NCBI RefSeq assembly: GCF_006094275.1
Contig: NZ_CP034412.1
Location: 434,001-498,000, forward strand
Length of the DNA stretch: 64,000 nt
Direction: 5' to 3'
From: Glutamicibacter creatinolyticus
GTDB lineage: Bacteria > Actinomycetota > Actinomycetes > Actinomycetales > Micrococcaceae
Positions 41,494-46,299 of the stretch are shown here, piece after piece. The notes beneath the pieces were generated by a model that did not search any database, had not been told where the DNA came from, and was given only the letters and a program-made list of their open reading frames with translations. The position numbers and the translations under genes were made by a program. Positions within the stretch are counted from its first letter, which is position 1; each line of letters opens with the position of its first letter.

Positions 41494-43032
41494 TTTATGG
41501 AGAGTTTGATCCTGGCTCAGGATGAACGCTGGCGGCGTGCTTAACACATGCAAGTCGAACGATGATGCTGGTGCTTGCACTGGTGGATTAGTGGCGAACG
41601 GGTGAGTAACACGTGAGTAACCTGCCCCTGACTTCGGGATAAGCCCGGGAAACTGGGTCTAATACCGGATATGACTTCCTGCTGCATGGCAGGGGGTGGA
41701 AAGATTTATCGGTTGGGGATGGACTCGCGGCCTATCAGCTTGTTGGTGAGGTAATGGCTCACCAAGGCGACGACGGGTAGCCGGCCTGAGAGGGTGACCG
41801 GCCACACTGGGACTGAGACACGGCCCAGACTCCTACGGGAGGCAGCAGTGGGGAATATTGCACAATGGGCGAAAGCCTGATGCAGCGACGCCGCGTGAGG
41901 GATGACGGCCTTCGGGTTGTAAACCTCTTTCAGTAGGGAAGAAGCCCCTTTTGGGGGTGACGGTACTTGCAGAAGAAGCGCCGGCTAACTACGTGCCAGC
42001 AGCCGCGGTAATACGTAGGGCGCAAGCGTTATCCGGAATTATTGGGCGTAAAGAGCTCGTAGGCGGTTTGTCGCGTCTGCCGTGAAAGTCCGAGGCTCAA
42101 CCTCGGATCTGCGGTGGGTACGGGCAGACTAGAGTGATGTAGGGGAGACTGGAATTCCTGGTGTAGCGGTGAAATGCGCAGATATCAGGAGGAACACCGA
42201 TGGCGAAGGCAGGTCTCTGGGCATTTACTGACGCTGAGGAGCGAAAGCATGGGGAGCGAACAGGATTAGATACCCTGGTAGTCCATGCCGTAAACGTTGG
42301 GCACTAGGTGTGGGGGACATTCCACGTTTTCCGCGCCGTAGCTAACGCATTAAGTGCCCCGCCTGGGGAGTACGGCCGCAAGGCTAAAACTCAAAGGAAT
42401 TGACGGGGGCCCGCACAAGCGGCGGAGCATGCGGATTAATTCGATGCAACGCGAAGAACCTTACCAAGGCTTGACATGTTCCAGACCGGGCCAGAGATGG
42501 TCTTTCCCCTTTTGGGGCTGGTTCACAGGTGGTGCATGGTTGTCGTCAGCTCGTGTCGTGAGATGTTGGGTTAAGTCCCGCAACGAGCGCAACCCTCGTT
42601 CCATGTTGCCAGCGGGTTATGCCGGGGACTCATGGGAGACTGCCGGGGTCAACTCGGAGGAAGGTGGGGATGACGTCAAATCATCATGCCCCTTATGTCT
42701 TGGGCTTCACGCATGCTACAATGGCCGGTACAATGGGTTGCGATACTGTGAGGTGGAGCTAATCCCTAAAAGCCGGTCTCAGTTCGGATTGGGGTCTGCA
42801 ACTCGACCCCATGAAGTCGGAGTCGCTAGTAATCGCAGATCAGCAACGCTGCGGTGAATACGTTCCCGGGCCTTGTACACACCGCCCGTCAAGTCACGAA
42901 AGTTGGTAACACCCGAAGCCGATGGCCTAACCACCTTGTGTGGGGGGAGTCGTCGAAGGTGGGACTGGCGATTGGGACTAAGTCGTAACAAGGTAGCCGT
43001 ACCGGAAGGTGCGGCTGGATCACCTCCTTTCT
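41494..43032 (+). rRNA. rrs: 16S ribosomal RNA, cluster 2
   Basis: Complete and, where compared, identical to 24648-26186. Identity with operon 1 begins at GTTTTTTATGG and runs to CTTTCTA; upstream of it the sequence is unrelated to the operon 1 leader. Confidence 0.97.
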
Positions 43033-43039
43033 AGTTTTG

Positions 43040-46000
43040 TGTTGAAAGTTTTTAAGGGCGCACGGTGGATGCCTTGGCATCAGGAGCCGATGAAGGACGT
43101 GGGAATCTGCGATAAGCCTGGTGGAGTCGATAACCGGACGTTGAGGCCAGGATTTCCGAATGGGGAAACCCGGCACCATGTTATGTGGTGTGACCCGTGG
43201 CTGAATGTATAGGCCATGTGGGGGGAACGCGGGGAAGTGAAACATCTCAGTACCCGCAGGAAAAGAAAACAATAGTGATTCCGTTAGTAGTGGCGAGCGA
43301 ACGCGGATGGGGCTAAACCGGTAGGTGTGTGATAGCGGATAGGCGTTGCATCTTCGGGGTTGTGGGGTCCATATGTGCCAGTTCTATTCGGCTGGCGGGA
43401 TGAGGTGCAGGCGTATAGGTGAATCGGTTGGAATGCCGGACCAGAGAGGGTGATAGTCCCGTAGTTATCATGCGTGCTGCCGTCCTAGTGTGGGTGCCCG
43501 AGTAGCACGGGGCTCGAGGAATCCCGTGTGAATCTGCCAGGACCACCTGGTAAGCCTGAATACTACCTGATGACCGATAGTGAATCAGTACCGTGAGGGA
43601 ATGGTGAAAAGTACCCCGGGAGGGGAGTGAAATAGTACCTGAAACCGTGTGCTTACAAACCGTTAGAGCAGGGCTTTGTGTTCTGTGATGGCGTGCCTTT
43701 TGAAGAATGAGCCTGCGAGTTAGTGCTGTGTCGCGAGGTTAACCCGTGTGGGGTAGTCGTAGCGAAAGCGAGTCTGAATAGGGCGTTTGAGTGGCACGGT
43801 CTAGACCCGAAGCGAAGTGATCTACCCATGGCCAGGTTGAAGCGCGTGTAAGAGCGTGTGGAGGACCGAACCCACTTCAGTTGAAAATGGAGGGGATGAG
43901 CTGTGGGTAGGGGTGAAAGGCCAATCAAACTTCGTGATAGCTGGTTCTCCCCGAAATGCATTTAGGTGCAGCGTTGCGTGTTTCTTACTGGAGGTAGAGC
44001 TACTGGATAGGCGATGGGCCCTACAAGGTTACTGACCTTAGCCAAACTCCGAATGCCGGTAAGTTAGAGCGCAGCAGTGAGACTGTGGGGGATAAGCTTC
44101 ATAGTCGAGAGGGAAACAGCCCAGAACGCCAACTAAGGCCCCTAAGCGTGTGCTAAGTGGAAAAGGATGTGGAGTTGCTGTGACAACCAGGAGGTTGGCT
44201 TAGAAGCAGCCACCCTTGAAAGAGTGCGTAATAGCTCACTGGTCAAGTGATTCCGCGCCGATAATGTAGCGGGGCTCAAGCACACCGCCGAAGTTGCGTC
44301 ATTCAAACATGTCATTGGCTTTTGTGGTCCAGTGGTTTGGATGGGTAGGGGAGCGTCGTGTGGCCGGTGAAGTCGCGGTGGAAACCAGCGGTGGAGGCTA
44401 CGCGAGTGAGAATGCAGGCATGAGTAGCGAATGACGGGTGAGAAACCCGTCCGCCGAATGATCAAGGGTTCCAGGGTCAAGTTAATCTGCCCTGGGTTAG
44501 TCGGGACCTAAGGCGAGGCCGACAGGCGTAGTCGATGGACAACGGGTTGATATTCCCGTACCGGCGAAGGACCGCCCATACTGAGCATCTGATGCTAACC
44601 ACCTGCCGCCATGACGTGCTGCCTCCTTTGGGGGGTGGTTGTGGTTGGTGGCTGGGAACCGAGGGTGTGAGGTCAGCGTGTTAACAGGTGTGACGCAGGA
44701 AGGTAGCCGAGCCAGGCAATGGAATTGACCTGGTCCAAGGGTGTAGGGTGTTTCGTTGGCAAATCCGCGGAACGTGTGCCTGAGACCTGATAGGCGCCCA
44801 CTTTGGTGGGTGATTCGGTGATCCTATGCTGCCTAGAAAAGCATCGGCGTGAGGTCCCAGTCCGCCCGTACCCTAAACCGACACAGGTGATCTGGTAGAG
44901 AATACCGAGGCGATCGAGAGAATCATGGTTAAGGAACTCGGCAAAATGCCCCCGTAACTTCGGAAGAAGGGGGGCCTGCCTCGTGAGGGAAACTTGCTTT
45001 CCTGAGCGGGTGTGGGCCGCAGAGACCAGGGGGAAGCGACTGTTTACTAAAAACACAGGTCCGTGCGAAGTCGCAAGACGATGTATACGGACTGACTCCT
45101 GCCCGGTGCTGGAAGGTTAAGAGGACCTGTTAGACCCCTTTGGGGTCGAAGCGGAGAATTTAAGCCCCAGTAAACGGCGGTGGTAACTATAACCATCCTA
45201 AGGTAGCGAAATTCCTTGTCGGGTAAGTTCCGACCTGCACGAATGGAGTAACGACTTCCCCGCTGTCTCAACCATGAACTCGGCGAAATTGCAGTACGAG
45301 TAAAGATGCTCGTTACGCGCAGCAGGACGGAAAGACCCCGAGACCTTTACTATAGTTTGGTATTGGTGTTCGGTGCAGCTTGTGTAGGATAGGTGGGAGA
45401 CTGTGAAGCCTGGACGCTAGTTCGGGTGGAGTCATCGTTGAAATACCACTCTGGCTGTACCGGTCACCTAACTTCGGACCATGATCTGGTTCAGGGACAG
45501 TGCCTGATGGGTAGTTTAACTGGGGCGGTTGCCTCCTAAAGAGTAACGGAGGCGCCCAAAGGTTCCCTCAGCCTGGTTGGCAATCAGGTGTTGAGTGTAA
45601 GTGCACAAGGGAGCTTGACTGTGAGAGTGACAGCTCGAGCAGGGACGAAAGTCGGGACTAGTGATCCGGCGGCACCGTGTGGAAGGGCCGTCGCTCAACG
45701 GATAAAAGGTACCTCGGGGATAACAGGCTGATCTTGCCCAAGAGTCCATATCGACGGCATGGTTTGGCACCTCGATGTCGGCTCGTCGCATCCTGGGGCT
45801 GGAGTAGGTCCCAAGGGTTGGGCTGTTCGCCCATTAAAGCGGTACGCGAGCTGGGTTTAGAACGTCGTGAGACAGTTCGGTCCCTATCCGCTGCGCGCGT
45901 TGGAAATTTGAGAAGGGCTGTCCTTAGTACGAGAGGACCGGGACGGACGAACCTCTGGTGTGTCAGTTGTACTGCCAAGTGCATCGCTGATTAGCTACGT

Positions 46001-46179
46001 TTGGAAGGGATAACCGCTGAAAGCATCTAAGCGGGAAGCCTGCTTCGAGATGAGATTTCCATGCACTTTTTGTGTGAGAGGCCCCCAGCTAGACCACTGG
46101 GTTGATAGGCAGGATGTGGAAGCAAGGACTAAAGACTTGTGTAGCTGACCTGTACTAATAGGCCGATGACTTATCAACA
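43040..46179 (+). rRNA. rrl: 23S ribosomal RNA, cluster 2
   Basis: Complete 23S matching operon 1. Bases equivalent to 26188-26435 are missing, so CTTTCTA of the 16S side joins directly to GTTTTGTGTTGAAAG. Only about 7 nt separate the mature genes. Coordinates follow the operon 1 convention. Confidence 0.96.
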
Positions 46180-46180
46180 A

Positions 46181-46299
46181 GTTACGGCGGTCATAGCGTG
46201 GGGGAAACGCCCGGTCCCATACCGAACCCGGAAGCTAAGACCCACTGCGCCGATGGTACTGCACTCGGGAGGGTGTGGGAGAGTAGGACACCGCCGGAC
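46181..46299 (+). rRNA. rrf: 5S ribosomal RNA, cluster 2
   Basis: 119 nt, starting 1 nt after the 23S end. Two substitutions from the operon 1 copy. The 36-nt 23S-5S spacer of operon 1 is missing. Confidence 0.94.

What the first reader, a model, noticed from the sequence alone, without database searches (positions are those of the whole stretch)
41494..46299. Second rRNA cluster with no leader and no 16S-23S or 23S-5S spacers
Compared with operon 1, bases equivalent to 26188-26435 (spacer 1) and about 29582-29619 (spacer 2) are absent, and the leader is replaced by unrelated sequence right up to the 16S 5' end. The three genes therefore abut. The RNase III processing stems formed by leader and spacers cannot form, and no rrn promoter is visible in the 161 bp after selB. 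The distinct terminator and two 5S changes show it is not simply a copy of operon 1. Either this is a real, strange rRNA cluster (perhaps dead, or fed by selB readthrough) or the assembly filled a repeat gap with near-mature rRNA sequences.
Basis: partly seen in the sequence, partly recalled or inferred. Interest (0 to 1): 0.75.

Follow-up and report, generated by a model that had tools for sequence, protein, structure and literature searches.

The report
rRNA genes misassembled into 5S locus
This bacterial genome seems to carry a strange ribosomal RNA cluster without spacers, but comparison with related species indicates that 16S and 23S gene sequences were pasted by the genome assembly into a small stand-alone 5S gene, so it is very probably not real biology.

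Summary
In detail: at 41491-46179 a 16S and a 23S gene abut (11 nt between them) and run straight into a 5S gene, with no rrn leader. Relatives change the reading. The window is from Glutamicibacter. In all 17 other genomes of the genus held here, the sequence left of the 16S (promoter and leader, to 41490) runs directly into the 5S found right of the 23S (from 46180): a conserved stand-alone ("lone") 5S gene. Only in this assembly is it split, by 4689 bases of 16S+23S. The two 5S changes are the marker bases of the lone 5S. The other three rrn copies are odd too: spacers 552/192, 258/39 and 259/7 nt, against 575-646 and 153-175 nt in 30 operons of five relatives; a second rlmB copy precedes operon 1. 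The right join lies one base from the longest exact stretch (59 nt) shared with operon 5S genes. The likely source, G. creatinolyticus LGCM 259 (inferred), was reported as Illumina 2x150 assembled with SPAdes. Against: no reads were seen; the terminator is only partly lone-like; the filling step is unknown. Verdict: assembly or gap-filling artefact (0.92).

The parts
41333..41490 (+). Intergenic stretch after selB holding the promoter and leader region of the lone 5S gene; proposed -35 TGGACA 41400-41405, 18-nt spacer, -10 TATGTT 41424-41429; conserved part about 41421-41490
   Evidence: Aligns to the sequence directly upstream of the lone 5S in six relatives (local scores 39-59; shuffle means 18-19, maxima 27-30). 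Eight rrn upstream stretches scored 21-36, none above its own shuffle maximum (29-39), two of them (L101, L106) about 4 SD above the shuffle mean. The boxes were picked by eye.
41491..46179 (+). 4689-base 16S+23S block, judged foreign to this place (assembly artefact)
   Evidence: The joined flanks 41390-41490 and 46180-46351 match across the join in 17 of 17 other genomes of the genus held; in this genome the match is split by these 4689 bases.
41491..43033 (+). 16S gene with a few precursor bases at each end
   Evidence: Rfam RF00177 41494-43030, 1603.8 bits; identical in all four copies over 1531 nt.
43034..46179 (+). 23S gene with about 8 precursor bases at its 5' end, ending at the Rfam 3' end
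   Evidence: Rfam RF02541 43042-46179, 2729.1 bits; identical to copies B and D over 3138 nt.
46180..46299 (+). Lone 5S gene (not an operon 5S)
   Evidence: Has the two lone-5S marker bases (A in CTAAGACCCA, G in CTCGGGAGG) and AG before GTTACGG, as in six of six lone 5S aligned; nine of nine operon 5S aligned have G, T and TG. Its terminal helix is like the operon 5S.
46300..46351 (+). Terminator-like hairpin after the 5S (read by eye)
   Evidence: Mixed: its first bases and GAGGCCCC look lone-like, its end (GCCTCGCCTGTTTAA) looks operon-like; most lone-5S matches stop about 8 nt past the gene, while several operon 5S align through it.
39434..41332 (+). selB-like gene, upstream neighbour of the lone 5S here (name by eye)
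   Evidence: ORF; full-length match only in this genome among 18 of the genus; best-scoring matches in the other 17 are 32-34% over about 260 residues, shorter pieces up to 40%.
46448..47254 (-). otsB-like gene, right neighbour; an otsA-like gene follows at 47286-48827 (names by eye)
   Evidence: Homologues of the first lie beyond the lone 5S in six relatives examined.
22047..24370 (+). rlmB-like gene present twice before operon 1: copy 1 from 22047, with a one-base shift near 22228, and copy 2 about 23448-24366, which runs straight into the rrn leader
   Evidence: Direct repeats of 300 nt (100%) and 149 nt (99%) with spacing 1369 and 1368, and a repeated leader piece 23341-23444 / 24362-24465. 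One rlmB region in each of five relative loci.
24363..29738 (+).
   Evidence: Spacers 258 and 39 nt against 575-646 and 153-175 nt in 30 operons of five relatives.

Best explanation
The cluster is an artefact of assembly or gap filling. The chromosome most likely reads selB - lone 5S promoter and leader - lone 5S - terminator - otsB here, with no 16S or 23S in between. A short-read assembly failed to cross the 59-nt stretch that this 5S shares with operon 5S genes, so a contig ended at the 5S 5' end; the break was taken for an rRNA operon gap and filled with consensus 16S and 23S sequence. SHOWN: the two flanks form one conserved gene in 17 of 17 other genomes of the genus held; the block sits at the 5' edge of that gene; the other three rrn copies of this assembly also depart from relatives. 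INFERRED: that the strain is G. creatinolyticus LGCM 259, that its reported short-read assembly is this sequence, that the other departures are errors too, and the filling step itself.
For: Joined flanks match across the join in 17 of 17 other genus genomes, 83-95% identical; in this genome the query splits into 475390-475490 and 480180-480351 (repeated on the fetched loci). The left flank is lone-5S leader. Both 5S changes are lone-5S marker bases. The longest exact stretch shared with the 5S of A and B is 59 nt (49 for D) and starts at 46181, one base inside the right join. Spacers of the four copies are 552/192, 258/39, 10/2 and 259/7, whereas copies within each of nine relatives differ by at most 7 nt (ITS1) and 11 nt (ITS2): 41 operons, none below 211 and 79 nt. 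Second rlmB copy before operon 1; repeated 5S tail in A, one-base insertion in the 5S of D. LGCM 259: Illumina HiSeq 2x150, SPAdes 3.9, deposited as a complete genome (passages of PMC7355418). The named relative Glutamicibacter sp. PS (L110) shows a like fault: leader fused to a 5S 3' end and an N gap at the next operon.
Against: No reads and no second assembly of this strain were examined. The block ends lie near mature rRNA ends, not where copies A, B and D diverge, so a plain collapsed-contig fill is not a perfect account. Reads of 150 bases cross 59 nt if the final k is larger, so the break needs a smaller k or trimmed reads. LGCM 259 is an inference; no call gives the length of CP034412. 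The sequence after the 5S and its terminal helix are partly operon-like. Two of eight rrn upstream stretches score about 4 SD above the shuffle mean against the left flank, though not above the shuffle maximum. The predicted leader-ITS1 pairing of copies B and D is strong (-146.5 and -151.0 kcal/mol), so these copies are not faulty in every respect. CTAGTTTT occurs at both the left border and the 16S-23S join, which I cannot explain. The strain differs from relatives nearby (fdh-sel genes), so real rearrangement is not excluded by gene order.
Confidence: 0.92

Rival explanations
1. A real, recent insertion: near-mature 16S and 23S sequence entered the chromosome at the 5' end of the lone 5S gene (for example by an RNA-templated event), giving a cluster driven by the lone 5S promoter.
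For: The block has near-mature ends, the flanks join cleanly without it, and a promoter region would be in place.
Against: No target-site repeat at the two outer borders and no mobile element in the block were seen by eye (no search was run for them). Identical 16S and 23S fit a pasted consensus equally well. The other rrn copies of the same assembly are unusual too. No exact copy of the 16S-23S junction in genome contigs, where the own record may be left out.
Confidence: 0.04
2. A real but degenerate operon: a normal second operon of the rlmB-rrn-rrn-5S-otsB region lost leader and both spacers by deletion and fused to the lone 5S.
For: Five relatives have an operon 0.6-1.9 kb upstream of the lone 5S. 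The sequence after the 5S is partly operon-like.
Against: The left flank is the lone-5S leader, so deletion from an upstream operon would not leave it in front of the 16S. It needs several precise deletions with no change in 16S or 23S.
Confidence: 0.02
3. The locus truly holds a full operon with normal leader and spacers, and only these were trimmed in the assembly.
For: Five relatives carry an operon 0.6-1.9 kb upstream of the lone 5S.
Against: The lone-5S leader lies directly left of the block and the lone 5S directly right. An operon placed as in relatives would have to lie upstream of about 41400, where selB is.
Confidence: 0.02

Closest known systems
Canonical bacterial rrn operon (16S-23S-5S) of Glutamicibacter
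   Same: Gene order, strand, and intact 16S and 23S
   Different: Relatives have ITS1 575-646 nt and ITS2 153-175 nt in 30 of 30 operons of five genomes; here 10 and 2 nt and no rrn leader
Conserved stand-alone 5S gene before otsB-otsA in Glutamicibacter
   Same: Promoter and leader, 5S marker bases, contiguity across the join and right neighbour
   Different: In this assembly it is split by a 16S+23S block; its terminal helix and part of its terminator are operon-like
Collapsed or misjoined rRNA operons in short-read assemblies
   Same: Departures cluster at rrn copies; L110 shows a like fault. The GROND paper warns that short-read assemblers may collapse rrn copies (passages of PMC11261877)
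   Different: Here gene bodies are placed where relatives have no 16S or 23S
Unlinked rRNA genes
   Same: Departure from the usual operon layout
   Different: GROND removes as unlinked the operons with ITS over 1.5 kb (passages), the opposite of this case

Membership tests
Functional rrn operon | rrn promoter and leader before 16S | tested here: not met
   The left flank aligns to the lone-5S leader (39-59, above all shuffles in six of six); against eight rrn upstream stretches it scored 21-36, none above its shuffle maximum, two about 4 SD above the mean
Functional rrn operon | Complementary flanks around 16S and 23S (RNase III stems; the rule is recalled) | tested here: not met
   ITS1 x ITS2 pairing: none in C (2 nt), -185.1 kcal/mol in A, about -116 in two relatives, -27.4 in B, -6.5 in D. 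Leader x ITS1: -8.7 in C against -222.1 (A), -146.5 (B), -151.0 (D), -183.6 and -174.1 (relatives) (no shuffle control, energies depend on length)
Functional rrn operon | Intact 16S, 23S and 5S | tested here: met
   Rfam matches over the full models
Lone 5S gene of Glutamicibacter | Shared promoter and leader up to TAG before AGTTACGG | tested here: met
Lone 5S gene of Glutamicibacter | Marker bases A and G in the 5S | tested here: met
   Shared by six of six lone 5S aligned and none of nine operon 5S aligned
Lone 5S gene of Glutamicibacter | Lone-type terminal helix and terminator | tested here: inconclusive
   Terminal helix operon-like, terminator mixed
Lone 5S gene of Glutamicibacter | No 16S/23S between leader and 5S | tested here: not met
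   Leader and gene contiguous in 17 of 17 relatives, not in this assembly
Assembly artefact | Absent from raw reads or an independent assembly | not testable with these tools
   No reads or second assembly available
Assembly artefact | Join lies at a repeat edge | tested here: met
   59-nt exact shared stretch starts at 46181

The most novel reading that the evidence does not exclude
Near-mature 16S and 23S sequence really was inserted in one strain between the promoter and the gene of a stand-alone 5S, making a spacerless rRNA cluster driven by a 5S promoter, whose rRNAs would have to mature without the usual leader and spacer stems.
Probability: 0.04. Interest if true: 0.85.

Novelty: not a real feature. 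Interest (0 to 1): 0.13.

Why it matters
It very probably removes an apparent exception to the rule that bacterial 16S and 23S are processed from stems made by leader and spacers, and warns that rRNA copy number, spacer length and operon structure cannot be trusted in this single-contig assembly. If it were real, it would be a natural test of whether rRNA can mature without leader and spacers. A by-product is a conserved stand-alone 5S gene with its own promoter region in the genus.

Tried and rejected
Exact search for the C 16S-23S junction in genome contigs: 0 matches; weak evidence, because the own record may be left out and the pattern is species-specific.

I first took the left flank for an rrn P1 promoter like that of copy A (note). 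Rejected: copy A scored 21 against it, no more than shuffles, while lone-5S leaders scored 39-59.

I first thought that the C 5S might come from another lineage, since it is 99% like the 5S of a genome of another genus (G152; note). Replaced by orthology with the lone 5S.

Tried to prove that the genome is LGCM 259: searches for LGCM 259, CP034412, LGCM259 and 3.3 Mb gave methods but no genome length. The original genome report (Santos et al. 2020, Gene 741:144566) was seen only as a reference-list entry of PMC8082909.

Selection: for spacer lengths I fetched the 16S places listed for 9 of the 37 relatives searched there, those in few contigs; G026, also one contig with two 16S places, was left out.

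Looked for the lone 5S in the 80 named rlmB loci: only L110 has any 5S-like match, and none of the 80 has a 16S or 23S match, so this says nothing about other genera.

No protein-family, structure or promoter-scan tool was used; the question did not turn on them.

Full report
What is there. Rfam finds complete 16S, 23S and 5S genes twice in the window. Cut at the same marker strings, the spacers are A 552/192, B 258/39, C 10/2, D 259/7 nt. 16S is identical in all four; 23S is identical in B, C and D, and A is 99.9% identical with 3 extra bases. C has no rrn leader.

Who it is. The best named rlmB matches are Glutamicibacter and Arthrobacter-labelled genomes, 'Glutamicibacter sp. PS' having the highest identity, 85% in its best segment. 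Seventeen other genomes of the same genus are held. One of them, G013, has a chromosome contig of 3,859,257 bases, the size printed for A. arilaitensis Re117, which was finished with 454 and Sanger reads from a 10-kb library (passages of PMC2991359). I therefore take the genus to be Glutamicibacter.

Normal rrn structure. In five relatives of one to three contigs (G002, G004, G013, G014, G016) all 30 operons have ITS1 575-646 nt and ITS2 153-175 nt. Over the nine genomes and 41 operons examined (genus, family and order; nine of the 37 relatives, G026 left out) the shortest are 211 and 79 nt, and copies within one genome differ by at most 7 nt in ITS1 and 11 nt in ITS2. Only copy A comes near this. 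B and D lack about 230 nt in the middle of the ITS1 of A, a part where A aligns with relatives, and most of ITS2. Copy A in turn has a stretch at the end of ITS1 that neither B and D nor relatives have. Predicted pairing of ITS1 with ITS2 around 23S is -185 kcal/mol in A and about -116 in two relatives, but -27 in B, -6.5 in D, and impossible in C. Predicted pairing of leader with ITS1 around 16S is strong in A, B and D (-222, -147, -151) and -8.7 in C (no shuffles, length matters). So B and D look damaged around 23S, not around 16S.

The lone 5S. In six relatives examined (five genomes plus L110) a second, stand-alone 5S lies between the last rrn 5S and otsB. It is a full Rfam match in the four loci tested, 93-100 bits. 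The Re117 paper counts 18 rRNA genes and six operons with identical 5S (passages), so this variant seems not to be annotated there. Six of six lone 5S aligned have A in CTAAG(A)CCCA, G in CTCG(G)GAGG and AG in front; nine of nine operon 5S aligned have G, T and TG. C has A, G and AG. Not everything fits: the terminal helix of the C 5S is operon-like, and the sequence after it is mixed. Its start looks lone-like and its end operon-like by eye, most lone-5S matches stop about 8 nt past the gene, and several operon 5S align through the terminator.

The left flank. The sequence up to 41490 aligns with the promoter and leader region of the lone 5S (six of six, scores 39-59 against shuffle maxima of 27-30). 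Eight rrn upstream stretches give 21-36 against shuffle maxima of 29-39; L106 equals its maximum and L101 is near it, both about 4 SD above the shuffle mean. A -35/-10 pair (TGGACA, 18 nt, TATGTT, 41400-41429) is read by eye.

The empty site. Flanks 41390-41490 and 46180-46351, joined, match across the join in 17 of 17 other genomes of the genus held, 83-95% identical; in our genome the match is split by 4689 bases (repeated on the fetched loci). The 16S-23S block therefore lies between the leader and the gene of a conserved lone 5S. This explains the missing leader and the two 5S changes.

Why an artefact. First, the longest exact stretch shared by the lone 5S and the 5S of A and B is 59 nt and begins at 46181, one base inside the right join. 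An assembly with k of 59 or less would tend to break there (inference). Second, the other rrn copies depart from relatives too: A has a repeated 5S tail; D has a one-base insertion in its 5S, a 7-nt ITS2 and a leader lacking about 140 nt of that of A; before B, rlmB occurs twice, copy 1 with a one-base shift and followed by its own intergenic stretch and the start of the rrn leader, then a jump back into rlmB, copy 2 running straight into the leader. Five relative loci show one rlmB region each. Third, G. creatinolyticus LGCM 259 was reported as sequenced by Illumina HiSeq 2x150, assembled with SPAdes 3.9 and deposited as a complete genome (passages of PMC7355418). That our genome is this strain is inferred from genus, single contig, and a size and high G+C that I recall for it (window 66.6% outside rrn); no call proves it. 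Fourth, L110 shows a leader fused to a 5S 3' end and an N gap at the next operon, the same class of fault.

What does not fit neatly. The block ends lie near mature rRNA ends rather than where A, B and D diverge, so the fill may have used gene-bounded sequences; this is a guess. The letters CTAGTTTT stand at both the left border and the 16S-23S join; I cannot explain this. No reads were available. An fdh-selD-IS110-like-tRNA-Sec-selA-selB stretch lies between operon 1 and the lone 5S (protein names by eye), and selB has no comparable match in the 17 relatives. A real rearrangement is thus possible, but it would not by itself explain an insertion of two gene bodies without spacers.

Verdict. 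Artefact, 0.92 (0.93 before the terminator was rechecked). A real in vivo insertion keeps 0.04. A PCR of 0.48 against 5.2 kb would settle it.

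Noticed in passing
46180-46299 with 41400-41490; L189-L205: A stand-alone variant 5S gene with its own conserved leader is present in 17 of 17 other genomes of the genus held; a full Rfam 5S in four of four loci tested; in Re117 it seems not to be among the 18 annotated rRNA genes. Expression and role unknown.
   Followed up: partly
22047-24370: An rlmB-like gene occurs twice before operon 1; copy 2 is a near-identical repeat joined to the rrn leader, and copy 1 has a one-base shift. 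Probably a second assembly fault.
   Followed up: partly
L005 8415-8600; L006 2713-3012 and 7925-8067: Copy A has a repeated 5S 3' part; copy D has a 7-nt ITS2, a one-base 5S insertion and a shortened leader.
   Followed up: partly
41487-41494 and 43031-43038: The same eight letters, CTAGTTTT, stand at the left border of the block and at the 16S-23S join. Unexplained; possibly chance.
   Followed up: no
29873-41332: A formate dehydrogenase-like gene set with selD-, selA- and selB-like genes, tRNA-Sec and an IS110-like transposase between operon 1 and the lone 5S; no comparable selB in the other 17 genomes of the genus. Looks like a lineage-specific selenocysteine island.
   Followed up: no
L110 10900-16150: Glutamicibacter sp. 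PS scaffold: rrn leader fused directly to the 3' end of a 5S gene, and an N gap at the following operon.
   Followed up: partly
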